A stretch of 64,000 bases of DNA from assembly GCA_019454045.1 (NCBI GenBank), contig SKCR01038904.1, positions 1 to 64,000 of the forward strand, in the 5' to 3' direction. Shown piece by piece: positions 597 to 62,878 of the stretch. The notes under the pieces were generated by a model, which worked only from the letters and a program-made list of their open reading frames with translations, was not told where the DNA came from and did not search any database. How positions within the stretch are numbered: position 1 is the first letter of the stretch; every line of letters starts with the position of its first letter. The stretch is from Zanthoxylum bungeanum (Eukaryota; Streptophyta; Magnoliopsida; Sapindales; Rutaceae). Made by a program: the position numbers and the translations under genes.

Positions 597-2638
597 TGTT
601 GGTTATTTCTAAGGTCCCAAGATCAAACAAGACATGAAATTATGTGTGAACACATCAACGGAGGTAGCGGAATACTCACATTGATCGGTAGAGTCGATAT
701 GAAGGCAAATGAACCCAAAAACGCACTGCCATGTAAGCCTACTGCATGCAGTCCACTGCCTACAAAAACAGAAAATTGAGTGAAGAAACGGAGCTCCGAG
801 CTTCGTCCGATGGATCCCGTCTCATGGTCGAACCTCCCTACCACCTTCGCAAGACTTGTAAGTGTGCTAGCACTTGAATTTTCACCATGAAAACCCACTC
901 TAGCTTCCCTCAAAGTCACGGTTTTGGCTTCCAAAACAGTGAGCATTGTGGCCCCTTGGGCGTGAGAGAAGAGAGACAATTGAGAGAGTTTTTGTTGTGT
1001 TAAGTTAATTAAAATGATTTACCAAAAATCAATTTATATTTATGCCATAATTTATTAATTAATAATAAACTTATGACACAAATCATGCAATGGCTTAGAG
1101 TGTCAAACACTCAATTTCCATGCAATAACATTGAGTGCATTGTACACTATCTACATGCAATAACATTGAGTGCATTATACACTATCTACATGCAATGCAT
1201 TAGAATGACATGTGTCATGTGGGCCCCACACGTTTCCAAATGAAAGTGGGCCCACGTGCACTCACGCATTCGGGTTCGATATTTCCGAAATACCGAGCTT
1301 ACGTCGCGACGTTAATTCAATCGAATAATTGCGGCTAGCGAAATTATTATTTACGTCGCTAACGAATTAATTCTAAATTAACTCGTTTGCCCGAATTAAA
1401 ATCTAATTTTAATTCCGCGTCGAAATCTAATTTCGTTTAATATATCGAATATATTAATTTGCCGATTAATTCCAAATTAATCGTTCTCTCTCTTTTAGAC
1501 GACTTTTATCCCGGATAAAATATCTCCGTTATTAATCCTAGATTAATTTTCTCTCTCTTCTATATAATCCCAGATTATTCAAGAGTGCAAGTTGTGCGTC
1601 ATCGGTGGATTATCGGGAAGCGACCCATGAGATCCCCGGATAATCTGGCAGTAAATACGGTCGTCGGAGTATCCGAATCACGTACGTACCACAGTACTAC
1701 GTTCTACCGTTTTACGAGACAAGGTCGACTCCTAGCAAAGCACCAAGTCTTCCCAAGTTCTCCGGACATATTCATCTAAGAATATCATGATCTGTATCAA
1801 GCGTAGTATACAATGTATTGTGCATATCGGCCCAGTATCGGATAGTCACGGTTAGGGCTGGGGCTGGATAAGTGTCTGCCCCGTCCGAAACACATATCGG
1901 ATGTCTGGTAACTAGTCTCTATAATCGGATATTCATGACCTAGTCATAATATCACGATTGGATGCGCATCACTTAGAGCACTAATTCCGTATCCTGCGTG
2001 ACATCATCTCCATTATGACTGGAGTGATACTTCCGTCTTGACATCACATCCAATACACTACGATTCTCTGATAAACCCAGAAGAGGTGAACACAGAACCA
2101 GTTAAGATCCCCCAACCACCAAAACCAAAGTTTACCGATTGTCGTAAGTATTAGCGATGTAAGTCTCAGGTTAAGACTATACACACCTACCTTGATTTCG
2201 GCCTCCCATAGACACCTAGTCAAAATACCAATGGGATTCCGAAGGGTCTATCCAGAGCGAAGAGCTGTTTCCCGTACCATCGGTGAAACACGACCTCCTA
2301 TCGCACTTGCACAAGTATCCAATACTTATATATATGAGAACTATGCCGTTGTGCCCTCAAACGCGCACAAGTGCAATACTAGCCTATTCCGCATTATCGA
2401 TGTCCAGTCTCGATAATACTACGGCTAGGGATATTTAATGATTAATCCTTCTTGGACTGATACTGTCTCATATCATCTCAATCCAGGAACTAATCATAGG
2501 GACCTCTCTTCATTTATATATCTATGGTGATCTAATCACAAAATGACGAGAGTGCAATTTCCTTGTTACATAGTTAATTTGCTACAACAACACAATGATC
2601 TGTGCAAATAGTGACGCTATGGGTCATATTATCCAACA
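597..2638 (-). repeat. Copia A 5' LTR (2,042 bp)
   Basis: A complete LTR running from TGTTGGTTAT to CCAACA on the plus strand, so it lies in minus orientation. It abuts a PBS on the left, which makes it the 5' LTR of the element that leaves the window. It is close to the solo LTR at 49991-52037 (both about 2.04 kb, sharing details such as gcgacccatgagatccccgga); the two define a longer subfamily, whereas other copies are 1.92-2.0 kb. It carries the array of short palindromes at about 1305-1580. Any TSD would start at 2639 (atatg), but its partner is outside the window. Confidence 0.88.
1305..1580 (-). repeat. Palindrome array in the A LTR
   Basis: Consecutive short inverted repeats, each with a 3-nt spacer, for example CGATTAATT/CCA/AATTAATCG, TTTATC/CCG/GATAAA, ATTAATC/CTA/GATTAAT and ATAATC/CCA/GATTAT. 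The same array is found in the other A LTRs that cover this zone. See the finding at 20752. Confidence 0.8.
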
Positions 2639-15655: not shown

Positions 15656-15790
15656 ACAAAATGGCCTCGGTGGAACGAATCCAGCCCCGAGCTGACTACT
15701 CAAGTATTGGCCTCGGCGGAACGAATCCAGCCCCGAGCTGACTACTCAAGTATTGGCCTCGGCGGAACGAATCCAGCCCCGAGCCGATTA
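15656..15790. repeat. 48-bp tandem repeat, about 2.7 units, in N
   Basis: ggcctcggcggaacgaatcc followed by agccccgagctgactactca and agtatt, repeated head to tail immediately after the 84-bp array. Confidence 0.9.
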
Positions 15791-17574: not shown

Positions 17575-19105
17575 ATATTGATTTTCCAAAAATCAAATGA
17601 TATACCAAAATTTGGTAAATGTCACTCACTTCCTTTCACACTTGTGTGTCTTACAAGCCACCATCATTTCATCACCAAACACCATCACCAAAAAGTTAGG
17701 CAAAGTGACTAGGTGATGTGGCTTGTGGGCCACACTTGATTCAAAATCCGAGTGGGCCCACAAACACATTCCGGGCTCAGGTTTGTTAATTCTGAATTAA
17801 CGAATTTTCTGTTGCGAAGTAATTAAATCAAATTTAATTAAATAATTATGCCTAGTAAAATTACTATTCACGTCGCTTGCGAATTAATTCTAAATCAATT
17901 CGTTCGCCCGAATTAAAATCTAATTTTAATTCCGTTATGAATCTAATTTCATTTAATATATCGAATATATTATTTTATCGATTAATTTCAAATTAATCGT
18001 TTTCTCTTTTCTAATAGTATTTTATCCCAGATAAAATCTCTCCATAATTAATCTTAGATTAATTATATTCGAATCATACGTCATCGGTGAATCTTCAGGA
18101 AGCGACCCATGAGATCCCTGGATATGTTGGCAGTAAATATGGTCGTCGGACTATCCGAACACGTTTGTACCTCGTACCATATTTTTACCGATTTATGAGA
18201 CATGGTTGGCTTCTAGCAAAGCGACGTGCCTACCCAATTCTCCAGAAATATTATTAAAGGAATATATAATCTTTGTCAGACGTAGTATACGTAGTATTGC
18301 GTATTTCGATCCAGTATCAGATGTCACATGCAAGGCCTGAGGCTGGAATAGTGTCTGCCCCATACCAAGCATATATCGGATCACGAGCAACTAGTCTCTT
18401 TAATCGGATAATCATGACCTTTTCATATTATCCCGATGGTTGCAACACATTAGATTACCAGTTCTGTATCCCTCCGTGATCATCATATCCATATGACTGA
18501 AGTGATACTTCCGTCTTGACATCACACTCAATACACTAAGATTCTCAATAAACCCAGAAGAGGCGTACACATAACCTGTTAAAGTCCCGGACGACCAAAA
18601 CCAAAGCGTATTGATTGTTGCAAGTACTAGCGATGCAAGTCTCAGGTTAAGACCAAATACACCTACCCTGAAGCAGATTTCCATAGACACAGTCATACTA
18701 CCAATTGGACTCCGCGGGGTCTATCCAGAGCGAAGCTGTTTCCGTACCATCGGCAAACATAACCTCCTATCACACTTGCATAAGTATCCAATACTTAAAT
18801 ATATGAGAACTATGCTGTTACGCTTCCATAACACGCACAGGTTCAATACTAGTCTATTCTGCATTATCGATGTCCAGTCTCGATAATACTACGACTAGGG
18901 ATATTTAATGATTAAACCTTTGTGGATTGATATTGTCTCATATCTTATAATTCGAACTAATCATAAGGACTTTTATCATTTTATATATTCAAGTAATCTA
19001 ATTACAAAATGATAAAATGAAATTTCCATTGTCAAATAATTAATTTGTACAAAAACCACAATGTCTTTTACAAATAGTGACGCTATGGGTCATAATTGTC
19101 CAACA

Positions 19106-19230: not shown

Positions 19231-19715
19231 TGTAACATCCCGGGTTATTTTAGAATATTAGCATGAATTTTATTTTTTTCGCGCGTGAAGCCGCGTCCGA
19301 ACGCGAAGTCAATTTTAGTGGATAATGGGAACTTTTCAAGAAATTAATTAGAAGACAATAATAATTAACCTAAAGGGATTAATTTGAGATTTGCCAAACA
19401 AGAGTAGATAAACCTAGATATTTCTACATACTATACACGTGTAACATACTTACACATCTAAATTAATAATTACACTTGTTCTAGAAACACCCACACACTT
19501 ATTTAAACACACATACGTGTTACACTTAATAATATACACACACAGTTAATTAATTAAATACACACCCAGTTCACACACACAGGCCGAAAAGAAGAAATAA
19601 GAAAGGCTCAGAAGAATCAAAAGGAGGCAGGCCAAAAGAGAAAGCCCAAGAAGAAAGTAGAGAAGAAATGATCAGGCCGAAAAGAGAAAATGGCTTAGAA
19701 GAAAAAAAAAGAGCA
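19231..19715 (+). repeat. Gypsy C 3' LTR, truncated
   Basis: The first 485 bp of the C LTR, matching 9366-9845 closely, cut at 19715 by the plus-strand copia A. The remaining 3.4 kb is not found in plus orientation in the window. The flank before the A element is gagca (19711-19715). Confidence 0.85.
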
Positions 19716-21660
19716 TGTTGGAAAATTATGACCCATAGCGTCACTATTTGTAAAAGACATTGTGGTTTTTATACAAATTAACTATGTGACAATGGAAATT
19801 GCTATTTTATCATTTTGTAATTAGATTACTTGAATAAATAAATGATAAAGTCCTTATGATTAGTTCCGGATTATAAGATATGAGACAATATCAATCCACG
19901 AAGGTTTAATCATTAAATATCCTTAGTCGTAGTATTATTGAGACTAGACATCGATAATGTAGAATAGACTAGTATTGCACTTGTGCGTGTTATGGAAGAG
20001 TAACAACATAGTTCTCATATATTTAAGTATTGGATACTTATGCAAGTGTGATAGGAGGTTGTGTTTGCCGATGGTACGGAAACAGCCTCGCTCTGGATAG
20101 ACCCATCAGAATCCCATTGGTAGTATGACTATGTGTCTATGGGAATCCAAATCAAGGTAGGTGTATTTGGTCTTAACCTGAGACTTGCATCGCTACTACT
20201 TGCGACAATCAATACGCTTTGGTTTTGGTCGTCCGGCGCTTTAACAGGTTCTGTGTAAGCCTCTTCTCGGTTTATTGAGAATCGTAGTGTATTGGATGTG
20301 CTGTCAAGATTGAAGTATCACTTCAGTCATATGAAGATGATGATCACGCAGGGATACAGAACTAGTACTCTATTATGTTGCAACTATTGGGATAATATGA
20401 CAAAGTCATGATTATCCGATTAAAGAGACTAGTTGCTAATGATCCGATATATGCTTCGTACATGACATACACTATTCCAGCCCTAGGCCTTGAATGTGAC
20501 ATCCGATACTGGATCGTAATACTACGTATACTACGCCTGGCAAAGATTATATATTCCTTAAAGAATATATCTGGAGAATTGGGTAGGCACGACGCTTTAC
20601 TAGAAGCCAACCATGTCTTGTAAATCGGCAAGAATGTGGTACGAGGTACGCACGTGTTCGGATAGTCCGACGACCGAATTTGCTGCCAATATATCCAGGG
20701 ATCTCATGGGTCGCTTCCCGAAGATTCACCGATGACATATGACTCGAACAGAATTAATCTGAGATTAATTATGAGAGAGAAAATTAATCTAGGATTAATT
20801 GCTGAAAGAATTTATCTGGGATAAAATTCAAATAGAAGAGAGAGAACGATTAATTCGGAATTAATCGATTAAATAATATATTCGATATATTATATGAAAT
20901 TAGATTTCATAACGGAATTAAAATTGGATTTTAATTCGGGCGAACGAATTAATTTAGAATTATTTTCGCGAGCGACTTTAATAGTAATTTTGCTATGCAT
21001 AATTATTTAATTAAATTTGATTTAATTAAGTCGCAACGGAAAATTCGTTAATTCAGAATTAACGAACCTTAGCCCGAAATGTGTTTGCGGGCCCACTCAG
21101 ATTTTGAATCAAGTGTGGCCCACCACAAGTCACATAACTAGTCAAACTACCTACTTTATGGTGATGGAAGTTAGTATTAGTTGTGTTAACTTGTAAGACA
21201 CATTTCATTATTTAATTTTGAAAAGGTGAATGACTTTTACCAAATCTTGGATTTGGTATATGAATTTTTTATTTTGGAAAATCAATATCATCTTACACAT
21301 TTTCATTCTTTTTCTTCTCTCTTATTGGCGTGAACTCGCCCTCTCATTTTCTTACAATTGCCGTGAGTTGCTCACTCCAAAGGGAAGATTTTTGTTGCAA
21401 ATTTCTTTCATAGCTAGCACTTAAAGAGACAACCAAGGTGTTAGGGAAACAATCCCTTGAGTTTGGAATTCATTCACCAAGCTTGGAGCTCAACAGACAA
21501 TCAAAGAGAGGAGCTTGGAGCACTTCTAAAGGAGACAAAGTTTTTATTGTCAACACATCCACATAACCGATCATTGTAAGTATTCTTCCGCAATCTTACT
21601 TCGAGTATTCATATCTTTTATGCTTAATTGATCCTAGGGATGTTCTTAAAGAACCCAACA
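19716..21660 (+). repeat. Copia A 5' LTR (1,945 bp), plus copy 1
   Basis: TGTTGGAAAATTATG to GAACCCAACA, followed by a mutated PBS atggtaccatgagcc (21661-21675). The first kilobase has the blocks shared by all A LTRs (for example ctctggatagaccc and gagacttgcatcgct). The palindrome array follows at 20752-21066. Confidence 0.9.
20752..21066 (+). repeat. Array of ten short palindromes with 3-nt spacers
   Basis: Inverted repeats at 20752-20770 (AATTAATC arms), 20782-20800 (AATTAATC), 20811-20825 (TTTATC), 20847-20867 (CGATTAATT), 20873-20893 (ATAATATAT), 20894-20910 (ATGAAAT), 20915-20937 (GAATTAAAAT), 20945-20968 (imperfect), 21007-21029 (TTAATTAAAT) and 21044-21066 (TTCGTTAATT). All the perfect ones have a spacer of exactly 3 nt, nearly always pyrimidine-N-G. 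As RNA it could fold into a row of triloop hairpins. Confidence 0.92.
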
Positions 21661-23824
21661 ATGGTACCATGAGCCAAATTATGCATGAAATTGATTAGGG
21701 TTCATAATCTTGAATTTGGGTATTTTTGCTTGGAGCATGATTTAATCAAATTGAGTGTTTGGATATGCTTAGATTATGATAGCTTAGAGTTATGCATGAT
21801 TATTTTGGAGAAAAAAAAGATTAGAAAATATTTTCCTAATTACCCTAGCTTGGCCGAAAGTTTGGACCCTTTGTAGCTCATGGTGATTTTGATTTTTTAG
21901 ACCATTGGATGTGTTTAAAATGCATGAGATATATTGATTTGTGATTTAATTAGATTGAAATCAAAATGAATGATAAAATGCATGAAATGCCGTGAGCTTA
22001 ATGAGCATGTAATGACTTGATTTTGTTTCAATTGTGTTGGACATGAATTGAATATAATAAAGCATGATTAATTAATTAAATTGGTGCTTTCGAAATGTTA
22101 ATTTAACTAATTAATTATGACTAAACACTTTAATTAAATAAATTGTGATATTTGAAATATTGGAATTTAATTAATTAGGCTTTAATTTGGAATTGGGCTA
22201 AAATTGTTATATTTGGGCCTGATGGGCTTGGTTGGGCCAAGTTGGTTTAGGACAATTGGATTGGATCCAAATTGAGCCTAAAACCATTCCGTTAAGTCCA
22301 AATATAATAAATAGGCCTTTTAAATTTAATTGGGCTTAATGAGCCGAAATTAATTTTATGGCAAATAGGGTGATTCCTTTATTGGGCCTTGGCATTTGGG
22401 TTTGACCCATATTGGCCAAAGCCCATGCCTTATGAATTAATTAAAAGCCCATTGGACTTTAATTAAATTGACATTGGATGTTAATTGGGCCTTTGAGACC
22501 CATTAAGATTGAATTTAGAATCTAAGTCTAAAAGGCACATTAATAAAGTGTAATTATTTAATTTGGAATTAAATAAGAATTAGTATTGAATACAAATTAA
22601 ATCGGATTTAAAATTGTAGTTCGATATAATTCAAGAATAATCACTTTGAGTACTTCTTCTTAAACGAGTTGGACTCGCGCAAATCAAATCGTTGTTTGAA
22701 GAATTGATGATCACTTAATTCAAAGATTAATTAATTTGATTAGATTGATTGAATAACATGATTTGTGTGAATACATAGATGTATTGTATGAATAATGTAT
22801 ATCGGATGGATATTAGACGGGTGAGGGTAATTTTAGAAATTGTTGTAATAAATTTAGAATTTATTAAATTGGACATGCGAGTCCAGTCTTTATCTCTGGA
22901 CTCTTTGTAATTCTCTTCTCACCAATTCCCCCCAATGTTAATGAGGTTTCTTTATTGCATTATGTAATTGGGTAGAAGTTAGAATAGTGATAGCCGGGGA
23001 GAGGAAATAGAGTGATTTGTTCTAGGAATAATTTGTTAAATATACATCCGTATATCGTTATTATTTTATTCGTGCCTTATTATGTTTTTAGAACGCATGC
23101 TTAGGGTGTATGATGAGACCTAATCAAATATAATAAATTGGTTGCCAATTTACGCGAAAAACCCTCAAACAAATATTAAGCGAATTCCTTCCATTGAGTG
23201 GTTCTTTCTCAAGATCCAAGATTGACATTGGTTTGTTGGCCAAAGTCAAGATCAATGTCCATCACAGATGTGTTTGAACCATGAAAGCTTTGTTCCATAT
23301 TGCATGTCTTGGGAAGTTGTGATTTGTTGGCCAAAGTCAAGGTCACTTCTTGTTCATCGACATGGATTACGAAGTTTTCCAAGGTCAATGGTTCCTGCTT
23401 AACTAGAATCATTAAGCTTGTTGAGCCAATGTCAAGGCTTAGTTGATTCAGAAGAAAATGTTAGGAAAATATATTGGATATATTGGCATATATATTGTAT
23501 ATATGTTTCGGACTTGGAGGTCCACCTACCGGATCTAGGAATTGGATGAAATCCAATTGATCTTAGAGATCTACCTAATTAAATATCATACAGCTTGTTA
23601 GCCAAAGTCAAGGTTGTGTGTTATTTAACGGGATCCTAACCCACTAGGAAACTAGGTTTCCCGAGTACTCAACAGAGGGTTAGAGGCTCGCTGAAAAATA
23701 GTGAGAGGCTAGTATTGAATTTGCAATTTCGTTCAAATACTTGCCAATATGTGCTTTCAAATTATTTCGTCATTTTATGTATTTATTAGTTAGACTAATA
23801 TTTTATTATTTTCTTGTAACAGTT
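21661..23824 (+). mobile_element. Copia A leader, plus copy 1
   Basis: An untranslated leader of 2.16 kb up to the insertion of D; it resumes at 33770. The middle (22190-22500) is rich in TGGGCY motifs. Four copies of a GTTGGCCAAAGTCAAG-like motif lie at about 23231, 23322, 23417 and 23593, and all recur in the other A leaders. The open frames at 21685-21876 and 23209-23412 are not shared as proteins and are rejected. Confidence 0.8.
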
Positions 23825-43223: not shown

Positions 43224-45147
43224 TGTTGGTTCTCTAATATCAATCCCAAGATCATTTAAGCATAAAACATGTGTGAATACGCAAAGAAGTAGCGGAAATA
43301 CTTACATTGAACGGATTGGATGTAGGTGGAAAGTTCAAAACTTTTGCTCATTTGAAGTGCTCCAAGTTCCTCTTTTGATTTGTATGTTGAGCTCCAAGCT
43401 TGATGTTTGATTCCAAACTCAATGGGAAAGGTTTCCCTATCACCTTTGAATGACCCTTTTATGTGCTAGCACTTGAAAATTTTGCAACAAAACTTCCTTT
43501 GTGTCTTTGTAACTCTCGGCAATGGAGAACCAAGAGAGGGAGAGTGGTTTCGGTTTTGCAAGGGAAAATGAGAGAGTGAAAAATATTAAGTCAAAATGAT
43601 TTCCAAAAAATCAAAACATATACCAAATCCAAGATTTGGTAAAAGTCTTTCACCTTTTCAAAATGGAATGTTTTAGAAGCCATCCCTAAAATACCAAATT
43701 CCATCACCATAAAGGTAAGTAAAGTGACAAGTGATGTGACTTGTGGTGGGCCCCACTTGATTCAAAATCTGATTGGGCCCGCAAACACAATCCGGGCTCG
43801 TGTTCGTTAATTCCGAATTAACGAATTTTCCGTTGATTAAATCAAATTTAATTAAATAATTATGCCTAGCAAAATTACTATTAAAGTCACTTGCGAATTT
43901 ATTCTAAATTAATTCGTTCACCCGAATTAAAATCAAATTTTAATTCTGTTATGAAATCTAATTTCATTTAATATATCGAATATATTATTTAATCGATTAA
44001 TTCCAAATTAATCGCTCTCTCTCTTCTATTTGAATTTTATCCCAGATAAATTCTCGCCGTAATTAATCCTAGATTAATTTTCTCTCTCTCATAATTAATC
44101 CCAGATTAATTCTGTTCAAGTCATACGTCATCGGTGAATCTTTGGGAAGCGACCCATGAGATCCCTGGATATGTTGGCAGTAAATCCGATCGTCGGACTA
44201 TCCAAACACATGCGTACCTGGTACCACGTTCCTACCGATTTACAAGACATGGTTGGCTTCTAGCAAAGCGCCGTGCCTACCCAATTCTCCCGAAATATTC
44301 TTAAAGGAATATATAATCTTTTTCAGACGTAGTATACGTAGTATTGCAATCCAGTATCTGATGTCACATGCAATACTTGAGGCTGGAATAGTATCTGCCC
44401 CGTACGAAGCATATATCAGATCATAAGCAACTAGTCTCTATAATCGAATAATCATGACCTTGTCATATTATCCCGATAGTTGTAACATAATAGAGAACCA
44501 GTTCTATATCCCTGCGTGATCATCATCTCTATATGACTGAAGTGATACTTCCGTCTTGACATCACACCCAATACACTATGATTCTCAATAAACCTAGAAA
44601 AGGCGTACACAGAACCTGTTAAAGTCCCGGACGACCAAAACCAAAGCGTATTGATTGTCGAAAGTATTAGCGATGAAGTCTCAGGTTAAGACCAAATACA
44701 CCTACCCTGATGCGGATTCCCATAGACACAAAGTCATACTTACAATGGGATTCTACGGGGTGTATCCAGAGCGAAACTGTTCCCGTACCATCGGTAAACA
44801 CAACCTCTTATTACACTTGCATAAGTATCCAATACTTAAATATATGAGAACTATGCCGTTATGCTCCCATAACGCACACAAGTGCAATTCTAGTCTATTC
44901 CGCATTATCGATGTCCAGTCTCGATAATACTACAACTAGGGATATTTAATGATAAAACCTTAGTGGATTGATAATGTCTCATATCTTATAATCCGGAACT
45001 TATCATAAGGACTTTTATCATTTATATATTCAAGTAATCTAATTACAAATTGATAAAATAGAAATTTCCATTGTCACATAGTTAATTTGTATAAAAACCA
45101 CAATGTCTTTTACAAATAGTGACGCTATGGGTCATAATTTTCCAACA
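43224..45147 (-). repeat. Copia A 3' LTR of minus element 2 (1,924 bp)
   Basis: TGTTGGTTCTC to TTCCAACA; the PPT complement atctcccactt follows at 45148. It is inserted in the integrase of minus element 1 (flank catac, 43219-43223). Palindrome array at about 43805-44117. Confidence 0.9.
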
Positions 45148-49119: not shown

Positions 49120-52100
49120 CTTAATTGCAATAGTCAAACTATTCAATTAACGATATTTGGGTACAGTCCAACTGTTACAAGAAAATAATAAAATATTAGT
49201 CCAACTAATAAATACATAAAATGACGAAATAATTTGAAAGCGCGTAATGCCAAGTATTTGAACGAAATTACAAATTCAATACTGGCCTCGCACTATTTTT
49301 CGGCGAGCCTCTACCCTCTGTTAAGTACTTGGGAAACCTAGTTTCCTAGTGGGCTAGGATCCCGTTAAATAACACATAACCTTGACTTTGGCCAACAAGT
49401 TGTATGATATTTAACTAGGTAGATCTCTAAGATCAATTGGATCTTATCCAATTCCTAGATCGGGAAGGTGGACCTCCAAGTCTGAAACATATATACAATA
49501 TATATGCCAATATATCCAATATATTTTCCTAACCTTTTCATCTGAATCAACTAAGCCTTGGCTTTGGCTCAACAAGCTTAATGATTCCAATTAAGCGGGA
49601 CCCATTGACCTTGGAAAACTTCGTAATCCATTTCGATGAACAAGAAGTGACCTTGACTTTGGCCAACAAATCACAACTTTCCCAAGACATGCGATATGGA
49701 ACAAAGCTTTCATGGTTCAAACACATCCGTGATAGACATTAATCTTGACTTTGGCCAACAAACCAATGCCAATCTTGGATCTTGAGAAAGAACCATTTAA
49801 TGGAAGGAAAACGTTTAATATTTGATTAAGGGTTTTTCGCGTAATTGGCAACCAATTAATTATCTTTGATTAGGTCTCATGATACATCCTTAAGCATGCA
49901 TTCTAAAAGCATAATAAGGCGTGATAAATAAAATAATAATGATATGCGGATGGATATCTCACAAATTGTTCCTAGAAAAAATCACTCAATTGTTGAGTTT
50001 CTATAGGTCCAAAGATCAAAACTCAAGCATGAATCATAAGCGAATACAACGACGGAAGTGCGGAATACTTACATCGAGCGGTTGAGAGACGATTTGGGCA
50101 ATAAAACAAACTGAATTCTGCTCACTGCCCACTGCTAATGTGCGTGAACTGCAGCAGTTTGTGCTTCTGTTTTGCGCCATTTTGATCAAGAAAAACGAGC
50201 TCCAAGCTTCATCAAAACGTTCCCGGCTCATGGGTATACTTCCCTTATCACCTTGGCATGATCCCGGAGTGTGCTAGCACTCTTGTTTTGCCACAAAACA
50301 CACTTGCTTCCCTCCATTTCTTTTGTTATTATCGGCAGTTCACTGCCTCACAAAAACCAGAAATGGCGTGAGAGAAAAGAGGAGAAGAAGAGGAGAGAGA
50401 TGAGGGAAAATGGAGAGTCAGTAGTGTATACGGTTTTGGTGGAACTTTATGCATCAAATGCATTTGAATTTCATTTGAAATTCATTTCACACACATTTGG
50501 GTTTAATTCCCAACCACACACATCACTCATCACATCAAGTCAACTCAATCAAGTTGTCAAGTCACATCACTCAAAGTGACAAGTGATTTGACGCTTGATG
50601 CGACTAATGATTTGACGCTCGATTTGACGAGCCACGCTCGAATTCGAAATGCGAATGCGCTCGTAAATAATCTCGGGCTCGGATTCACTAATTCTAAATT
50701 AACGAATTTTCCGTCGCGTCGTAATTAAATGATTACGCCAAGCGAAATCACTATTCCCGTCGCTAACGAATTAATTCTAAATTAATTCGCTCGCCCGAAT
50801 TAAAATCTAATTTTAATTCCGCGTCGAAATCTAATTTCGTTTAATATATCAAATATATTAATTCCTCGATTAATTCCAAATCAATGTTTCTCTCTCTTCA
50901 ATTGATATTTTATCCTAGATAAAGTGTCTCCGAAATTAATCCCAGATTAATTTTCTCTCTCATCATATTAATCCCGGATTAATAAAAGTGCGAGTCATAC
51001 GTCATCGGTGAATCTTTGGGAAGCGACCCATGAGATCCCCGGATATGTTGGCAGTCAAATCGGTCATCGGACTATCCGAACACGTGAGTACCAAGTACTA
51101 CGTTTTACCGATTTACTAGACAAGGTTGGCTTCTAGCAAAGCACCAAGTCTTCCCAATTCTCCGGACATATTCTTATAAGAATATTTAGATCTGTATCAA
51201 GCGTAGTATACGATTATATTGTGCATATCGGCCCAGTATCGGATAGTCACGTGCTAGGCCTGGGGCTGGATAAGTGTCTGCCCCGTACGAAGCACATGTC
51301 GGATGTCTGGTAACTAGTCTCTATAATCGGATATACATGACCTTGTCATAATATCACGATGGCCGCGTAGCACTTAAGAGCACTAATACCGTATCCTGTG
51401 TGACATCATCTCCACTATGACTGGAGTGATACTTCCGTCTTGACATCACATCCAATACACTACGACTCTCTGATAAACCCAGAAGTGGTGTACGCAGAAC
51501 CGGTTAAAGCCTGTACCACCAAGACCAAAGTCTATCGATTATCGTAAGTATTAGCGATGTAAGTCTCAGGTTAAGACTATACACACCTACCTTGATTTCG
51601 GCCTCCCATAGACACATAGTCATAATACCAATGGGATTCCGAAGGGTCTATCCAGAGCGAAGCTGTTTCCCGTACCATCGGTGAAACACGACCTCCTATC
51701 GCACTTGCATAAGTATCCAATACTTATATATATGAGAACTATGCCGTTGTGCCCTCACAACGCACACAAGTGCAATACTAGCCTATTCCGCATTATCGAT
51801 GTCCAGTCTCGATAATACTCCGGCTAGGGATATTTAATGATTAATCCTTCGGGGACTGATACTGTCACATATCATTCTCAGTCCAGGAACTAATCATAGG
51901 GACCTCTCTTCATTTATATATCTATGGTGATCTAATCATAAATGATGAGAGTGCAATTTCCTTGTCACATAGTTAATTTGCTACAACAACACAATGATCT
52001 GTGCAAATAGTGACGCTATGGGTCATTTTGTCCAACATCAATTTCCTCTCCCCGGCTAGCACCATTCTAAATTCTACCCAATTACATAATACAATAAAGA

Positions 52101-52690: not shown

Positions 52691-54695
52691 TGTTGGAATT
52701 CTCTAAGCTTCCAAAGATCATTTCAAGCATGAAATATAAGTGCGAATACAACGAGGGAGTTGCGGAATACTCACATAGATCGGTTGAGCGACGCGGCAAT
52801 GAACAAAAAATGATTTTCTGCCTCTGTCATGGTCACGGCAGTGACTGTTTTTCAGCTCACTGTTTTCGGCCATTGTTGCTCCTTGAACAAGCTCCAAGCT
52901 TCGTCAAACGATTACAAGCTCATGGGTGGACTTCCCTATCACCTTCGCATGTCTCTCAGAGTGCTAGCTCTCTTGATTTTTGCCATAAAAATCAAACAAT
53001 TTGCTTCCATTTTCTTCAATGACTCTCGGCAGTGGGCTGCCAAAACCAGAAGAAAATGCCCCTCCATGGGCGTGAGAGAGGAGAAGAATTGGAGGAGAGA
53101 GAGAGATATAATATGTAATTGGTTTTTGGTAATTGATTTTCCAAATCATATACCAAAATTTTGGCTTTAAAAAGTCAAACAATAAAAGCCATAAATGCCA
53201 ACCACTACATCAATCAATCAATTATCACATCACTCAAAGTGACATGATTTGACGCTTGATGTGACTAGAGATTTGACATGCGTGCCGCATTCGAATTCGA
53301 AATGCGAATGCGCTCGCAAACAATCCCGGGCTCGGGTTCACTAATTCTAAATTAACGAATTTTCCGTTGCGACGTAATTAAATGATTATGCCTAGCGAAA
53401 TCACTATTCACATCGCTAACGAATTAATTCTAAATTAATTCGCACTCCCGAATTAAAATCTAATTTCAATTCCGCATCGAAATCTAATTTCGTTTAATAT
53501 ATCGAATATATTAATTTAATCGATTAATTCCAAATTAATCGTTATCTCTCTTTAAATGATATTTTATCCCAGATAAAATATCTCTGCAATTAATCCCAGA
53601 TTAATTTTCTCTCTCTTCTAATTAATCCCAGATTAATAAAGTGCGAGTCATACGTCATCGGTGAAACTTTGGGAAGCGACCCATGAGATCTCGGGATATG
53701 TTGGCAGTAAATTCGGTCGTCGAACTATCCGAACACGTAAGTACCTAGTACTACGTTTATACCGATTTACAAGACAAGGTTGGCTTCTAGTAAAGCGCTA
53801 TGCCTACCTAATTCTCCAGAAACATGCTTACAGGAATAAGCAATTTATATCAGGCGTAGTATACGGAGTATTGCGTATTTCGATCCAGTATCGGATGATC
53901 ACGTGCTAGGCTGGGGCTGGGGGCTGGTTGTGTCTGCCCCGTACGAAGCACATGTCAGATGTCTGGTAACTAGTCTCTATAATCGGATCAACATGACCTT
54001 GTCATTTTATCCCGATGACTGCAGTACATAAGAGTACTAGTACCGTATCCTATGTGACATCATCTCCACTATGACTGGAGTGATACTTCCATCTTGACAT
54101 CACACCCAACACACTACGATTCTCGATATACCCAGAAGAGGCGTACACAAAAACCGGTTAAAGCCCTGGACGACCAAAACCAAAGTATATTGATTGTCGC
54201 AAGTATTAGCGGTGCAAGTCTCAGGTTAAAACCAAATACACCTACCCTGATTTCGGACTTCCATAGACACATAGTCATACTACCAATGGAATTTCGAGGA
54301 GGTCTATCCAGAGCGAAGCTATTTCCCGTACCATCGGTAAAAACACAACCTCCTATTACACTTGCATGAGTATCATATATCCAAATATATGAGAACTATG
54401 TCGTTATACCCTCACAACGCGCACATGTGTAATACTAGTATTTTACGTATTTATCGATGTCCTATCTCGATAATACTCTGACTAGGGATATTTAATGATT
54501 TATCCTTCGTGGTCTGATACTGTCTCATATCATTCTCAATCCAGGAACAAATCATTAAGACCTCCTATCATTTATATATCTTGGTGATCTAATCACAAAT
54601 GATAAGAGTGCAATCTCCTTTGTCACATAGTTAATTTGTACAACAACATCATTATCTATACAAATAGTGACGCTATGGGTCATAACTGTCCAACA
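52691..54695 (-). repeat. Copia A LTR shared by two internal regions (2,005 bp)
   Basis: TGTTGGAATTC to GTCCAACA. On its left is the PBS of minus element 2, making it that element's 5' LTR; on its right is a PPT complement (atctcccactt), making it the 3' LTR of a further minus internal region. Palindrome array at about 53341-53640. Confidence 0.9.
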
Positions 54696-54953: not shown

Positions 54954-56924
54954 TGTTGGACAATTATGACCCATAGCGTCACTATTTGTACAGATCATGG
55001 TGTTGTTGTACAAATTAACTATGTGACAAAGAGATTGCACTCTTATCATTTGTGATTAGATCACCTAGATGTATAAATGATAGGAGGTCCTTATGATTAG
55101 TTCCTGGATTGAGATGATATGAGAAAGTATCAGTCCACAAAGGATTAATCATTAAATATCCCTAGTCGTAGTATTATCGAGACTGGACATCGATAATGCA
55201 GAATAGACTAGTATTACACTTGTGCGTGTTATGTGAGATCATAACGGCATAGTTCTCATATATTTGGGTATATGATACTCATGCAAGTGTAATAGAAGGT
55301 TGTGTTTTACCGATGGTACGGAAAATAGCTTCGCTCTGGATAGACCCCTCGGAATTCCATTGGTGGTATGACTATGTGTCTATGGAAGTCCGAAATCGGG
55401 GTAGGTGTATTTGGTCTTAACCTGAGACTTGCACCGCTAATGCTTGCGACAATCGGTATGCTTTAGTTTTGGTCGTCCAGGGCTTTAACCGGTTCTGTGT
55501 ACGCCTCTGCTGGGTATATTGAGAATCGTAGTGTATTGGGTGTGATGTCAAGACAGAAGTATCACTCCAGTCAAAGAGGAGATGATGTCACGTAGGATAC
55601 GGTACTAGTGCTCTTAAGTACTGCAGTCATCTGGATGTTATGACTAGGTCATGTATATTCGATTATAGAGACTAGTTACCAGACATCCGACATGTGCTTC
55701 GCACGGGGCAGACACAGTTCCAGCCCCAGGCCTAGCACGTGACATTCGATACTGGATCGCAATACGCAATACTACGTATACTACGCCTGACATAGATTAT
55801 ATATTCCAGTAAGAATATTTCTGGAGAATTGGGTAGGCACAGTGCTTTGCTAGAAGCCAACCATGTCTTGTAAATCGGTAAGAACGTGGTACGAGGTACG
55901 TACGTATTCGGATAATCCGATGACCGTATTTACAGCCAACATATCCAGAGATCTCTTGGGTCGCTTCCCAAAGATTCACCAATGACAGTTGATTCGAATT
56001 AGAATTAATCTGGGATTAATTAAGAGAGAGAAAATTAATCTAGGATTAATTGAGGTATTATTTAATCTGGGATTAAATGTGTTAGGAAGAGAGAGAACGC
56101 GATTAATTTGGAATTAATCGGTAGAATAAAATAATAGTTAAATTTGATTTTTCTATTTAATTTATTCGTATAGGCTAATATTAATATATCAGATATATTA
56201 ATATGAATTGGATTTCGTTACAAAATTAAAGTCGGACTTTAATACGAATGAACGAATTAATTTAGAATTAATTCGTAAACGACATTCGTAATATATTTGC
56301 GAGGCATCGTTATTTAATTAAATTAGATTTAATTATTTAGCGATGAGAATTCGTTTAATCGGATTAAACGGATCCGAGCCACGACAAATGTTCGTAGAGA
56401 CATTTGAATTTTGAATTCAAATGTGGGGCCCACTTAAAATGTGGTAGTTGGGAGAGTGGTTGGCATTTATGCCATACCATCCACTTTCCAACCACCTTGG
56501 AATGGTTTTGGCAAAACCATTTACCCAACCACCTTGTTTAGGTGAAAATGGTAAATTGGCTTTTACCAAAACCTTCTATCTCTCTCATTTGTGCATGCAT
56601 CACACAAAACACACTTGGAACAAAATGGAAACCCTAAAATCCTCTCAATTGGCGTGAGCTTCTTGCCTTCTTCTCTTTGATTTTGTTGCAAAATCAACAA
56701 AGCTAGCACTTCAAGGAATCAACCAAGGTGATAGGGAAACTAACTCAAGGGTTGGAATCTTCAACTCAAAGCTTGGAATCAACAAAGGAAGCATCTTTGA
56801 GATCTTCTTCTAAAAAATTAAAAGCTCAAATCCATTCAATGTAAGTAATTCCGCAACTTATTTTGAATTTATGATCATGTTTTCATGCATATTAGATCTT
56901 TGGCATGTTCTAGGAACACTAACA
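54954..56924 (+). repeat. 5' LTR of plus copy 2 (1,971 bp)
   Basis: TGTTGGACAATTATGACCC to GGAACACTAACA, followed by an intact PBS (tggtatcagagcc). Palindrome array at 56003-56370. Confidence 0.92.
56003..56370 (+). repeat. Palindrome array, diverged copy with compensating changes
   Basis: Perfect inverted repeats with 3-nt spacers at 56003-56021, 56033-56051, 56060-56078 (ATTTAATC), 56100-56120 (CGATTAATT), 56178-56204 (12-bp arms), 56225-56243 (ATTAAAGT), 56253-56275 (CGAATTAATT), 56315-56335 (TAATTAAAT) and 56352-56370 (CGTTTAAT). Several arms differ from those at 20752-21066, yet both arms changed together. Confidence 0.92.
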
Positions 56925-59372
56925 ATGGTATCAGAGCCAAGTTTAAGCATGAAAATTTTAGGGTTCATGTGACTAAAATTTGGGGCTTTTATGTTTTGAA
57001 TATGATTTCTTCAAATTGATGCTTTGAGCATGCTTAGATTATGTTAACTTAGAGTTGTGAATGATTAGATTTGAGACAAATCAAGTGGATCAAAAATTAT
57101 AAATTTCCTTAGTGAGGCCGTGAGCTTCAACAGTCCACTGCAGTTTGATTTTTCATTTTTTACACTATTGGATGTGTTTAAATGCATGATAAAATGTTGA
57201 TTGTTGGTTTGATTAGATTAGAATCAAAGTCAATAATGTTTATGTTAAAATCAAAGAGCATGTTGAGCATGAAATGATGAATTTTGGATTCAATTTGTGT
57301 TAAGCATAAATTGATGGATTAAGCATGATTAATTAAGTTAATTGGTATTTTGGAAATATTGAGTTTAATTAATTAATCATGGCTAATACACTTTAATTAA
57401 AGTAATTGTGATATTTGGAATATTATAATTATGTTAATAAGCCTTTAATTAAGAATTGGGCTAAAAGTGTGTATTTGGGCTTGTTTTGACTAAGTTTGGT
57501 TTTGGACTTTTGGATTGGATCCAATTGGGCCCAAAATCAATTCCATAAAGTCCAAATATATCACTTGACCCTTTAAAGAATTTAATTGGGCCTAATGGGC
57601 CTAAATTAATTTGTAGGCAATAGGGTGATTCCTATTGGGCCTTGGCATTTTGGGTTTGATCCATTATGCCCAAAGCCCATGCCTTAAGAATTAATTAAAA
57701 GCTTATTGGACTTTAATTAAAATGACAATGGATGTTATTGGGCCTTTGAGACCCATTAAAATTGGATTTGGAATCCAAGTCTTTAAGGCTTATAAGTAAG
57801 TGCATATATTTAATTTGGAATTAAATTGGAATTAGTATTGAATACAAATAAATTGGATTTAAAGTTGCAGTTCAAAATAATTCAAGAATACTTACTTTGA
57901 GTATTTATTCTTAAACGAGTTTGACTCATGCAAATCAAATCGTTGTTTGAACATTGGATGGTCATTAATTCAAAGATTAATTAATTGGATTAGATTGATT
58001 GAATAACATGATTTGTATGAATACATGAATGTGTTGTATGAATAATGTATATCAGATGGATATTAGAAGGGCGAGGGAAATTTTGGAAATTGTAATAAAT
58101 TTAGAATTTATTTAAATTGGACCTGCGTGTCCAGCCTTTTATCTCATTTCTCATTGTATTTCTCTTCTCACCTATTCCCCTCAATGTAAATGAGGTTTCT
58201 TTATTGTATTATATAATTGAGTAGAAGTTAGAATAGTTCTAGCCGGGGAAGGGAAATTGAGTGATTTGTTCTAGGAACAATTTGGGACATATCCATCAGC
58301 ATATCATTATTAATTTATTTATCGCGCCTTATTATGCTTTTAGAATGCATGCTTAAGGGTGTATGATGAGACCTAATCAAAGATAATAAATTGGTTGCCA
58401 ATTTACGTGAAAAACCCTCAAAACATATTAAGTGTTTTTCCTTCCTTTGAGTGATTCTTACTCAAGATCCAAAGTTGGCATTGGTTTGTTGGCCAAAGTC
58501 AAGACCTTTGTCAATTGCGGATGTATTTGAATCATGAAAGCTTTGTTCCATATCGGTGTCTTGTCCAAGTTGTGATTTGTTGGCCAAAGTCAAGATCACT
58601 TCTTGTCCATCGACATTGATTACGAAGTTTTCCATGTCAATGGGTTCCGCTTAACTGGGATCATTAAGTTTGTTGTGCCAAAGCCAAGGCTTAGTTGATT
58701 CAGAGGAAAAAGGTTAGGTAATATATTCGATATATTGGCATATATAAGATATATGTTTCGGACTTGGATGTCCACCTACTGGATCTAGGAATTGGATGAG
58801 ATCCAATTGATCTTAGAGATCTACCTAGTTAAGTATCATACAATTTGTTGGCCAAAGTCAAGATTGTATGTTATTTAACAGGATCCTAGCCCACTAGGAA
58901 ACTAGGTTTCCCGAGTACTCAACAGAGGGTTAGAGGCTCGCCGAAAAATAGTGGGAGGCGAGAATTAAATTTGCAATATTCGTTTAATTACTTGCCATAC
59001 GCGCTCAATCAAATATCATTCGTCAAATAAATATTATTTATTAGTTGGAGTAATATTTAATTGTTGTTTTAATAAACAGTTGGACTGTATTCAAACTACT
59101 TCATTTATAGTTGATTATATAATTAGATTATAGTAATCAATATATTGAATTTTACCCTTCATTTATAGTTGATTATATAATTGGATTATAGTAATCAATA
59201 TATTTGAATTTTATCGATAATTTATAGTTGATTATATAATTGGAATATAGTAATCAATATATATTTGATTTTAACCAATAAAAGTATACTTGATTATATA
59301 GTTGGACTATAGTAATCATTATATTAAATAGTACCTGAATCGTTGATTAAATAGTTGGACTATTAGAATCAA
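56925..59372 (+). mobile_element. PBS and leader of plus copy 2
   Basis: The PBS tggtatcagagcc at 56926-56938 is the cleanest in the window. The leader has TGGGCY-rich sequence (57460-57740) and four GTTGGCCAAAGTCAAG-type motifs (about 58482, 58574, 58667, 58852). It ends in a minisatellite (59100-59372). The gag start codon of other copies (aagATGGC) is replaced by aagataaat. Confidence 0.85.
59100..59372 (+). repeat. 60-bp tandem repeat, about five units, before gag
   Basis: Units ttatagttgattatataatt, ggattatagtaatcaatata, tttgaatttta start near 59104, 59163, 59221, 59283 and 59341. Each holds a dyad (TTGATTA and TAATCAA around a centre). Other A copies have a single, related unit just upstream of gag. 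Confidence 0.9.
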
Positions 59373-59999
59373 GATAAATTGAAAGATTAGTGTGTAAAAC
59401 ATAATCCTAGTGAAAATGTGTTTAAACGACTTTAATTTTCAAATTGGGAATAAATTTCAGGATAGTCCTGAAACTAAGAAGTTACTTTATTTGATAAAAT
59501 AACATCTTAGGCCTAAGCCCGGAGTTAAGCAAATAGTAGCGCTGATCTTCGGAAGATTCATGTGATGATAACTTTAATGTTTAATCCATTATGCTTGCCA
59601 TAAAGACTCCTTAATTTCCTAATCAGAACTAAGGATTAGATCCTTAAATTATGATGAAGAAATTGAAGGATCTTCATAATCTATTCTTAGATCTTAGAAG
59701 TATTAATTGCAATTAATAACTCTTCGAGAGTTAATGGCTATTCTCAAGGAGATAAAGCCAAAGTTTGCAATAAGGCAAGTAGCGCAAGGCGCACCTTACT
59801 TCGATATTCTAGAAACCCAAGGCTTGGCCAAAGGCTTCTGGGATATAGAAAAGGTAAAGGCAAAATCATTACTGTCTTCTAGGAAGACAAAGAACATATC
59901 TAAAGATTTCTGCTTAAACTGTTGCAAATGGGATCACTGAAGCGTGACTACCGTATGGACAAAGCAGACATGAAGGATTGAAGACGAGTAAGGCTCTGA
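59373..59999 (+). pseudogene. gag: Gag remnant of plus copy 2
   Basis: Recognisable only piecewise: LRPKPGVK near 59508, LRELMAILKEIKPK at 59719 onward, a Lys-rich tract, and FCLNCCKWDH, stop, in place of CLQCGKWGHWKRDC. Many indels. Confidence 0.78.
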
Positions 60000-61440
60000 C
60001 TTCAAATATATTTGTCATAAATATGTTCACTACTAGTATTAAAATGGATTTGAATACTAGTGTGATACATAAATATGCATTGATGTGCAGAATCTGCTAT
60101 GAGCAGGATACTGACTTCAATTGAGAATTAATTGCGAATCAGAAACGGGACGAAAGTCGCTGTTTTTTAACCGCAGATACCTAAGTTTAGGAACTACCCT
60201 TCGGGTGTGTACTTAAATTAGGAAACTGTTATAATGTAACTAGTTTGACTAGAAACATTATCTCTATATCGAGTATACTCGTTGCGAGTACACCTTTATA
60301 TTCTAGTACACTAAAGTGTTTTATTTTATAAGGATCATATTGAGATAAACACATTAGATGTGAATAACAGTATTTATATTTTGAATATACATAAATCTCA
60401 AACATATAACATGACAACAAATAGCTTAAACTGATTTGATCAGATGAGACTTATTTGTGGCAGTGTTGTCTGGGACACATTAAACAAGACTCGTATATCC
60501 ACACTTTTGAGGAGTGGATACTAGGACGGATTTGATTCCATTCAAATGATGTCTACGAATCTAGTTTATTAGGTAAAGTACCTAAAATACCTTTTACTTG
60601 GTAAAATGTAAGTGCCATCGATCTGTTAGCCCTCGTTCATAGTGACATAAGTGGGGCCATGTCTAGCTAGGCTAAATATGGAAATGAATGTTTCGTGACC
60701 TTTACGGATGTGGCATCGCGTTATGGTATGTGTTTCTTATGAAACACAAATCGGAAACTTTTAGAGTTTCGACACGAAATAGACAACAGATCGGCTAAAG
60801 TATTAAAACATCACGGTTTGACCATGATGAAAATACTTAAGCAATAAGTTTCTCATATACTTGAAAGAGTATAGTATTCTTTCAATGAGGACTCCTCCTG
60901 GAACACGTCAATTTGACGGTGTGTCCAAACAGAGAAATCGAATTTTGTTAGACATGATAAGGTTAATCATGAGTCACTCTGAGCTACCATTTTCCTTCAA
61001 AAGGGATAAGCATTAACAGTGCAATACTTATTTTTGAATAGGTTCCATGAAAATCTGTTTGACAGATTTCATATTAGATATGAACAGGAAAGAAATCGGA
61101 TTTTCTCACTCCTATTGATTTGGGAATGCTAAGCCTAAGTTGGATGATACCAAACAGGAACCCAAAATTGGATAAGTGCCAATTGTAGGTTATCCTGAGG
61201 AAACCAAAGTATAGTACTTATACAACTCAGTAAGAGAACAATATGATTGTTGCTCACCATGCGGTTTTCCTAAGAGGAATACCGATATGCAATGGTAAGT
61301 GGGAGGATAGTAAAACTCGGTGAAAATCAGAGTTATACTGTTCCAGGCACCAAGTCTTTAATGGAACACAAACGGTTCATCAAGGATGAAACCATACCAA
61401 TAATCTTCGAATACACAAGAACAGCGTAGGTCGGAGAGAG
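60000..61440 (+). pseudogene. pol: Protease and integrase remnants of plus copy 2
   Basis: Nucleotide similarity to the other copies is continuous, but frames change every few tens of bases. The signature sequences are ctgggacacattaaacaag (zinc finger, 60470), gacctttacggatgtggcat (60698), ggtgtgtccaaacagagaaa (catalytic Glu region, 60919) and taggttatcctgaggaaacc (61184). The longest plus-strand frame is trivial. An earlier decay stage than any other A copy. Confidence 0.8.
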
Positions 61441-62867: not shown

Positions 62868-62878
62868 AAGTGGGAGAT
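62868..62878 (+). promoter_or_regulatory. PPT of copia A plus copy 2
   Basis: aagtgggagat, directly before the TGTTGGAC of the 3' LTR. The same tract (reversed) lies at 40948, 45148 and 54696. Confidence 0.88.

What the first reader, a model, noticed from the sequence alone, without database searches (positions are those of the whole stretch)
20752..21066. Array of about ten short palindromes, each with a 3-nt spacer, in every copia A LTR that covers the zone
Seen directly: ten consecutive inverted repeats with 6-10-bp arms fill 315 bp, all perfect ones with a spacer of exactly 3 nt and nearly all spacers reading pyrimidine-N-G (TGG, TAG, CGG, TCG, CAG, TTG). The same kind of array lies at about 1305-1580, 17785-18064, 43805-44117, 50690-50990, 53341-53640, 56003-56370 and 63928-64000. 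No ordinary LTR feature (TATA, poly-A signal, PBS, PPT) calls for this. Inference: a structured RNA made of triloop hairpins, a cluster of dyad protein-binding sites, or the product of repeated template-switching during reverse transcription.
Basis: partly seen in the sequence, partly recalled or inferred. Interest (0 to 1): 0.9.

Follow-up and report, generated by a model that had tools for sequence, protein, structure and literature searches.

The report
RNA hairpin code across a retrotransposon
A very abundant plant copia retrotransposon carries dozens of short hairpins along its length, capped by the same three-letter loop pattern and kept on the coding strand, which looks like a repeated docking site for a protein that handles the element's RNA rather than an ordinary promoter repeat.

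Summary
The array is real: each of seven complete zones beats 500 of 500 dinucleotide shuffles. It is the densest part of something larger. Perfect short palindromes with a 3-nt centre reading T-N-G on the sense strand run through LTR, leader and gag-pol: TNG against its reverse complement CNA is 382:2, 62:0 and 37:0 for arms of 7 bp or more. Other sampled DNA of the genome has few. In 54 array copies counted on a tree, stems change 0.83 times per column, linkers 2.84, loop positions 1.2, 7.1 and 2.6; 12 of 81 stem pairs show at least 16 double changes. A second family without detected coding capacity also has TNG and no CNA. Best reading: sense-strand RNA hairpins with a Y-N-G triloop, under selection, acting as many copies of one protein-binding site; Gag and packaging is my likeliest guess (inferred). 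Palindrome clusters are known from Sirevirus LTRs; this element fails the three Sirevirus sequence tests made, and ten literature searches listed no report of an element-wide, strand-fixed loop rule. New variant of a known kind.

The parts
19716..21660 (+). LTR of copia family A (TGTTGG...CCAACA) that holds the reported array (scripts cut it at 21663)
   Evidence: self-comparison and terminal inverted ends
20752..20770 (+). array hairpin 1, loop TGA
20782..20800 (+). array hairpin 2, loop TAG
20811..20825 (+). array hairpin 3, loop TGG, 6 perfect bp
20847..20867 (+). array hairpin 4, loop CGG
20873..20893 (+). array hairpin 5, loop TCG
20893..20911 (+). array hairpin 6, loop TAG
20915..20937 (+). 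array hairpin 7, loop TGG
20945..20968 (+). array hairpin 8, loop TAG, imperfect in this copy
21007..21029 (+). array hairpin 9, loop TTG
21044..21066 (+). array hairpin 10, loop CAG
20024..20040 (+). LTR hairpin outside the array, TAAGTAT[TGG]ATACTTA
21238..21258 (+). LTR hairpin downstream of the array, TACCAAATC[TTG]GATTTGGTA
22554..22576 (+). leader hairpin, TTATTTAATT[TGG]AATTAAATAA
22846..22866 (+). leader hairpin, TAATAAATT[TAG]AATTTATTA
23134..23152 (+). leader hairpin, TAAATTGG[TTG]CCAATTTA
54954..56924 (+). 5' LTR of a second family A element whose 3' LTR is cut by the window end (scripts used 54952-56926); array at 56003-56370, further hairpins at 56400-56424 and 56677-56697
56927..59400 (+). 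stretch taken as the leader of that element (the gag start was not determined): 12 TNG palindromes with arms of 6 bp or more, 0 CNA, 5 other; shuffle mean for TNG 0.10
59401..62870 (+). stretch taken as gag-pol of that element: 12 TNG palindromes with arms of 6 bp or more, 0 CNA, 6 other; shuffle mean for TNG 0.08
61051..61069 (+). example hairpin inside gag-pol, AAATCTGT[TTG]ACAGATTT
56926..56938 (+). tRNA primer binding site (TGGTATCAGAGCC), one base after the LTR end
62869..62878 (+). polypurine tract AGTGGGAG plus AT, directly before the 3' LTR at 62879
1305..1580 (-). homologous array
17785..18066 (-). homologous array
43803..44117 (-). homologous array
50690..50990 (-). homologous array, in a solo LTR (49991-52037) with 5-bp target duplication TCAAT
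53341..53640 (-). homologous array
56003..56370 (+). homologous array
63928..64000 (+). start of a homologous array, cut by the window end

Best explanation
The palindromes are stem-loops of the element's sense RNA: stems of about 6-11 bp of free sequence, closed mostly by U-A or C-G, capped by a three-base loop of the form Y-N-G (mostly U-N-G), repeated a few dozen times along the transcript (densest in the LTR array, then leader, then gag-pol). SHOWN by sequence: existence, fixed loop size, strand orientation, spread over the element, constraint on stems and on loop positions 1 and 3, freedom of position 2, compensatory changes, and presence in a second family in which no coding capacity was detected. 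INFERRED: that the acting molecule is the sense RNA, and that a protein reads the loop. Most likely mechanism (my guess at about 40%): the loops are many copies of one recognition site for the element's own RNA-handling protein, Gag, so that full-length RNA, including that of non-coding partners, is gathered and condensed into particles, as dispersed packaging signals do in single-stranded RNA viruses.
For: Strand and centre: LTR 382 TNG:2 CNA (of 493), leader 62:0 (of 77), gag-pol 37:0 (of 54); distinct inner 7-mers 27:2, 20:0, 19:0. The 2-kb scan of the window and 20 loci of 10 kb shows TNG on + copies and CNA on - copies with very few exceptions. Stretch tests: TNG 8, 12, 12, 8, 8, 6 in six family A stretches against shuffle means of 0.03-0.10, 0 of 300 shuffles each. 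Four pol ORF pieces pooled: 6 TNG and 1 CNA (arms 5 bp or more) against a codon-shuffle TNG mean of 0.56, 0 of 500. Loop letters over ten hairpins in 58 copies: p1 T467 C82 A2 G1; p2 G270 A197 T41 C40; p3 G522 A19 T8 C2. Tree counts on 54 rows: stems 0.83, linkers 2.84, loop 1.2/7.1/2.6 changes per column; at least 16 double changes at 12 of 81 pairs. Pair counts on 56 distinct rows: 96.4% of cells pair; 81 cells changed on both sides against a shuffle mean of 24.1 (0 of 500) and 2-27 when partners are slid. G.U over A.C: 66:32 cells, 40:23 tree changes, 50:15 in one-mismatch stems. Sense strand folds better than antisense in 7 of 7 arrays. Closing pair T-A 55, C-G 17, G-C 7, A-T 5 of 84 distinct hairpins. 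Family C: 4 TNG in part of its LTR and 9 in its internal region, 0 CNA in either, 0 of 300 shuffles each, no Pfam hit in three sense frames of two copies. Dispersed packaging signals as a concept: PMC6281560, passages seen.
Against: No binding, probing or expression data; Gag as reader is a guess, and only a decayed zinc-knuckle remnant was seen, in one copy. In gag-pol alone G.U is not clearly above A.C (14:8 occurrences, 4:6 distinct). The RNA z-score of the whole array is moderate, -3.7, with 1 of 100 shuffles as good, while the minus strand under DNA parameters gives -9.6. Array copies are related: many double changes are shared by descent, and some lie at loosely paired stem ends (pairs 29/49, 243/259, 264/287). 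The number of pairs changed on both sides is 14, but 12 and 11 at two of the six slides, and the structure came from these sequences, which favours it. Centres other than TNG and CNA are also raised over shuffles, e.g. 4 against 0.56 and 6 against 1.12 in family A, 11 against 1.67 and 12 against 1.82 in family C, where they outnumber TNG. In unmasked background TNG/CNA is the largest centre class, 28 of 98; of the 16 listed there with arms of 8 or more I place 10 in family C, 3 beside family A LTRs and 3 elsewhere. In family C the stems differ only slightly less than the rest (0.091 against 0.129, one pair of copies), and its lack of ORFs could be decay. Many gag-pol hairpins are present in only part of the copies.
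Confidence: 0.6

Rival explanations
1. By-product of replication: reverse transcriptase repeatedly snaps back on itself or switches template at short hairpins, which makes and re-perfects palindromes without any function.
For: Would give perfect arms, new arm sequences, a fixed short loop and one strand orientation over the whole element; orientation does follow the transcript. In leader and gag-pol the arm lengths simply decay with length.
Against: Outer loop letters are conserved while the middle one is the fastest, 7.1 changes against 2.84 in linkers; single-pair replacements with T.G intermediates occur (pairs 399/413 and 244/258); another copia stretch in the window, 6800-9850, has only 1 TNG palindrome; LTR arm lengths show a modest second peak at 8-9 bp.
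Confidence: 0.13
2. DNA-level regulatory sites: dyad binding sites for transcription factors in the LTR, as proposed for Sirevirus repeated motifs.
For: The densest cluster lies in the middle of the LTR; Sirevirus palindromes lie upstream of the TATA box and were read as possibly regulatory (PMC2829016).
Against: Arms share little beyond A+T richness while loop letters are shared; T-N-G orientation is fixed though a dyad site has none; such units also sit in the leader and gag-pol.
Confidence: 0.12
3. A host RNA-binding protein, not Gag, reads the hairpins, for nuclear export, stability, translation or small-RNA routing of the transcript. (This shares the RNA-hairpin part of the best explanation, so the two odds are not exclusive.)
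For: What supports an RNA hairpin supports this equally; in maize, Sirevirus palindrome regions are small-RNA hotspots (PMC5311732 and PMC10760457, passages).
Against: The roughly 140 kb of sampled sequence outside family A held 28 TNG/CNA palindromes, a good part of them in family C, so no broad host set was seen, but this sample is small; a silencing role alone would hardly be kept by the element (inference).
Confidence: 0.2

Closest known systems
Sirevirus LTR repeated motifs (RM), Bousios et al. 2010, PMC2829016 (outline, passages, section 9 and part 1 of section 4 seen)
   Same: Clusters of short palindromes (8 or more copies per element) in long copia LTRs, some copies outside the LTR; 5 of the 13 published RMs can be read as 3-nt centres of C-N-G type (CGGT[CAG]ACCG, CGGT[CTG]ACCG, CGGA[CCG]TCCG, and CACCGGA[CTG]TCCGGTG twice; my reading of their Table 3).
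   Different: RMs are copies of one sequence per element, mostly with a CGG-CCG core forming CpG islands; here arms differ and are A+T-rich and the loop is shared, in one orientation, over the whole element. The authors report RMs absent from the classic copia elements they studied; this element is of the classic kind by the tests made.
[quoted passage not shown] 2016, not held; known through passages of PMC5311732 and PMC10760457)
   Same: Palindromes with a 3-nt centre in a rapidly evolving LTR zone with predicted secondary structure.
   Different: One G+C-rich arm sequence; no loop-letter rule, strand rule, compensatory test or coding-region copies in the passages I saw.
Dispersed packaging signals of single-stranded RNA viruses (review PMC6281560, passages seen)
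   Same: Many stem-loops of varied sequence sharing one recognition motif, scattered over the RNA.
   Different: Capsid-protein binding is the basis there; here it is only inferred, and the carrier is an LTR retrotransposon.
YNMG/UNCG-type loops and enterovirus triloops (PMC5633025, passages seen)
   Same: Loop starts with a pyrimidine and ends with G with free letter(s) between; the paper discusses triloops that may mimic the UNCG fold.
   Different: Those are single replication elements, mostly tetraloops, read by protease 3C; no relation by descent is implied.

Membership tests
Ty1/copia LTR retrotransposon | copia-type reverse transcriptase (RVT_2) with an upstream GAG-pre-integrase domain | tested here: met
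   family A ORF pieces at 45869-46918 hit PF07727 and the piece at 47416-47904 hits PF13976; 34576-35238 hits PF22936. The integrase core hit in that call belongs to the other copia element.
Sirevirus | PPT octamer AGGGGGAG, several copies in a long linker before the 3' LTR | tested here: not met
   no AGGGGGAG in the window on either strand; AGTGGGAGATTGTTGG at four LTR starts; it follows the pol stop within a few bases (my reading); classic elements often carry this G-to-T variant (PMC2829016)
Sirevirus | 5' LTR/PBS junction CA/ATTGG... | tested here: not met
   junction reads ...AACA/A/TGGTATCAGAGCC at 56924; ATTGGTATCAGAGC absent from the window
Sirevirus | CGG-CCG core palindromes forming CpG islands (present in most RM-bearing members, not all Sireviruses) | tested here: not met
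   array GC is 0.23-0.31 and arms are A+T-rich
Sirevirus | place in the Sirevirus clade of an RT tree | not tested
   no named reference elements at hand; names in the best 120 homologues were uninformative
RNA hairpin family under selection | compensatory double changes beyond controls | tested here: met
   81 cells changed on both sides, 0 of 500 shuffles, though pairs changed on both sides (14) reach 12 at one slide; at least 16 tree events
RNA hairpin family under selection | match to a described RNA family | tested here: not met
   no Rfam 15 match with E up to 0.1 in 19700-23830
Dispersed packaging signals | many stem-loops sharing a loop motif along the genomic RNA | tested here: met
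   38 YNG palindromes with arms of 6 bp or more in 54952-64000; loop letters. By sequence only.
Dispersed packaging signals | direct binding by the capsid protein | not testable with these tools
   needs binding assays
Dispersed packaging signals | present in RNAs packaged in trans | tested here: inconclusive
   family C, with no coding capacity detected, has the motif, but that family A proteins mobilise it was not tested

The most novel reading that the evidence does not exclude
LTR retrotransposons can use a genome-wide set of loop-coded RNA hairpins (Y-N-G triloops) as dispersed packaging signals read by Gag, and non-coding elements ride along by carrying the same loop code; the known Sirevirus LTR palindromes are a sequence-homogenised version of the same system.
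Probability: 0.3. Interest if true: 0.92.

Novelty: new variant of a known kind. Interest (0 to 1): 0.78.

Why it matters
How plant copia elements choose their own RNA, and how non-coding partners get mobilised, is to my knowledge largely open. A short, strand-fixed loop rule that can be counted in any genome sequence gives a direct test: which lineages carry it, whether the loop letters change together with Gag, and whether non-autonomous elements match the loop preference of their helper. It also offers an RNA-level reading for LTR palindrome arrays that have so far been read as promoter elements.

Tried and rejected
Chance from A+T richness: rejected. A single transcription-factor motif: rejected because arms differ while loop letters are shared. 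General property of this plant's DNA: not supported; outside families A and C the sampled loci show few TNG/CNA palindromes, although that class was the largest in the unmasked background (28 of 98). General property of copia elements: not supported; 6800-9850 has 1 TNG against 0.07 expected, 20 of 300 shuffles reach it. Sirevirus membership: three of three sequence tests failed; the RT-tree test was not made. C-to-T decay of a C-N-G centre as the whole cause of T-N-G: I reject it by inference, since decay on both strands should give C-N-A as often as T-N-G (counts). Rfam: nothing. Relatives in viral contigs: no match. Homologue names for lineage: uninformative in the 120 of 4353 listed. The enod40 paper PMC10578108 (passages) and the LTR survey PMC3601003 (passages) were checked as possible earlier reports; neither describes this in the passages shown. 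The not-in-print statement rests on the listings only.

Weaknesses: the 20 loci of 10 kb were taken at round-number positions on contigs already known to hold family A, so the 30% family share is biased upward. Counts are over related copies, and one place (L010/L011) is in twice; distinct inner 7-mers are given for that reason. One short hit (L007:1-222) was in the 58 copies but left out of A2. One search dropped duplicate rows and rows under 300 bases, leaving 54 of 57. Family C was examined in sense frames only for Pfam. The limits of U3, R, U5 and of leader and gag were not determined. Genome searches with three further array variants (window 1305, 17785, 53341) and with the 50690 variant and family C did not complete, so copy diversity comes mostly from loci met by chance.

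Full report
OBSERVATION. The ten palindromes at 20752-21066 are there. Nine of ten centres fit pyrimidine-N-G, the first being TGA. Three of them pair inward to a 1-nt spacer if read as DNA palindromes, and two are imperfect, so 'all with exactly 3' needs that correction. Each of the seven complete zones exceeds 500 of 500 dinucleotide shuffles. In the loci held from the same genome (3.96 Gb), 58 array copies were found, and each hairpin keeps arms of 6 bp or more in 38-57 of the 43-58 copies that cover it.

SURROUNDINGS. The LTR is 19716-21660 (TGTTGG...CCAACA); the window holds about nine family A LTRs in whole or part. The element at 54954 shows the anatomy: 5' LTR to 56924, primer site TGGTATCAGAGCC one base later, an A+T-rich stretch that I take as leader (cut at 59400; the gag start was not determined), a part homologous to copies with copia pol domains, then AGTGGGAG-AT and the 3' LTR at 62879. 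The pol stop lies a few bases before this tract, so there is no long linker (my reading).

THE PATTERN IS ELEMENT-WIDE AND STRAND-FIXED. Listing 3-nt-centre palindromes (arms 7 bp or more) in sense orientation gave TNG in 48 of 63 cases in the window's LTRs and 11 of 15 in two leaders, with unrelated arms. Over the window and the loci then held: LTR TNG 382, CNG 73, CNA 2 of 493; leader TNG 62, CNA 0 of 77; gag-pol TNG 37, CNA 0 of 54. Distinct inner 7-mers for TNG:CNA are 27:2, 20:0 and 19:0. The numbers of TNG and CNA triplets themselves differ far less (6380:4635, 2266:1091, 2068:1796). A 2-kb scan shows the orientation following the element strand with very few exceptions. In the part of 20 loci not similar to family A, TNG/CNA was 28 of 98 palindromes, the largest class; of the 16 listed with arms of 8 or more I place 10 in family C, 3 beside family A LTRs and 3 elsewhere. 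Six family A stretches each beat 300 of 300 shuffles for TNG; other centres are raised too, less strongly. The other copia stretch at 6800-9850 does not stand out (1 TNG, 20 of 300). Codon-preserving shuffles of four pol ORF pieces reach the observed 6 hairpins in 0 of 500 trials.

SELECTION. On 58 aligned arrays the loop letters are Y-N-G: p1 T or C in 549 of 552, p3 G in 522 of 551, p2 any base. On a tree built from non-hairpin columns (54 rows), stems change 0.83 times per column, linkers 2.84, and loop positions 1.2, 7.1 and 2.6. There are at least 16 changes between Watson-Crick types at 12 of 81 stem pairs, a few of them at loosely paired stem ends, and 40 tree changes to or from G.U against 23 for A.C. 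The independent pair counter gives 96.4% of cells paired and 81 cells changed on both sides (shuffle mean 24.1; 0 of 500), falling to 20.8-57.6% paired and 2-27 cells when partners are slid; pairs changed on both sides are 14 against up to 12 when slid, and related rows can exceed shuffles without structure. Two pairs (399/413 and 244/258) show U-A, U.G and C-G states, the path expected for RNA; the second is also unpaired in 12 rows. In leader and gag-pol, homologous sites keep hairpins with changed arms, for example AACTCT/AGAGTT against AATTCT/AGAATT at 59724, and TCTAAT/ATTAGA against CCTAAT/ATTAGG at 62610. Against this, many gag-pol hairpins are present in only part of the copies.

WHICH STRAND ACTS. 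One-mismatch 9-bp stems with TNG loops show G.U 50 against A.C 15 in total, 23 against 12 distinct; leaders 12:0, gag-pol 14:8 but 4:6 distinct. Sense arrays fold better than antisense in 7 of 7, though the array's RNA z-score is only -3.7. I favour the sense RNA, at moderate strength; single-stranded DNA is not excluded by sequence (the minus strand folds with z -9.6 under DNA parameters).

A SECOND, APPARENTLY NON-CODING FAMILY. Family C (L035 5055-10000 and L038 on the minus strand) has a primer-site sequence and a polypurine tract AAGTGGGAGAAAT before TGTTAGGG. In L038 3500-10000 one ORF of 80 aa or more was listed, and three sense frames of the internal region of each of two copies gave no Pfam hit; decay of former genes is not excluded. 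It has 9 TNG and 0 CNA palindromes in its internal region and 4 and 0 in part of its LTR, 0 of 300 shuffles each; other centres number 12 and 11, so the rule is weaker there. Between its two copies 25 sites compare as loop differences 3, 8 and 5 at p1, p2, p3, and stems 0.091 against 0.129 outside. Keeping such hairpins without proteins would point to a cis signal.

MECHANISM. A loop rule with free stems, many copies, one strand, and presence in an apparently non-coding family is what a multivalent protein-RNA recognition system would look like. Gag and packaging is the likeliest reader (inference, about 40%); a host RNA-binding protein is next. The dispersed-packaging-signal concept is taken from passages of PMC6281560. 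That Y..G loops can form a UNCG-like cap, perhaps in triloops too, rests on passages of PMC5633025; closing pairs here are pyrimidine-purine in 72 of 84 distinct hairpins.

COMPARISON. Sirevirus LTR palindromes (PMC2829016, section 9) are the nearest known thing, reported there as absent from the classic copia elements studied. This element fails the Sirevirus polypurine-tract, junction and CGG-CCG tests; the tree test was not made. Five of the 13 published Sirevirus motifs can be read as C-N-G triloops (my reading of Table 3), so a common basis is possible but unproven; C-N-G reads the same class on both strands and cannot show orientation. By recall, not by any search, the RT resembles the Tork/TAR side of the copia tree.

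VERDICT. Real, non-random, under selection, and wider than reported. The RNA-hairpin reading is well supported; the reader protein is unknown.

Noticed in passing
window 13693-14456 and 16816-17578: A 764-bp direct repeat (96% identical) flanks about 2.4 kb that holds a tandem array (about 14680-15658): looks like a small non-autonomous LTR element with an internal satellite.
   Followed up: no
window 49991-52037: Solo family A LTR, minus strand, with 5-bp target duplication TCAAT, inserted into the leader of another family A copy.
   Followed up: partly
window 59118-59364: Short tandem repeats at 53-62 bp spacing near the leader/gag boundary, most carrying a T-N-G hairpin, with T-A/C-G arm swaps between units and copies.
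   Followed up: partly
window 6807-8944: A different copia element (gag and integrase hits) that lacks the T-N-G hairpins; a natural control.
   Followed up: partly
L035 5055-10000, L038 3516-9218, L051 1-871: Family C, a copia-like element with no detected coding capacity, its own LTR and T-N-G hairpins, TTG being the commonest loop.
   Followed up: partly
L031-L050: About 30% of the 200 kb sampled is family A-like, though the contigs were chosen because they hold family A copies.
   Followed up: no
window 27393-27917 and 38144-38566: Two further open frames of 174 and 140 aa; the first looks like a Gypsy-type protease region, the second like a plant transposon-associated protein (by eye only).
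   Followed up: no
alignment A2, middle column of each loop: Loop position 2 changes about 2.5 times faster than linker columns (7.1 against 2.84 changes); part may be methylation-driven C-to-T change, but the excess is unexplained.
   Followed up: no
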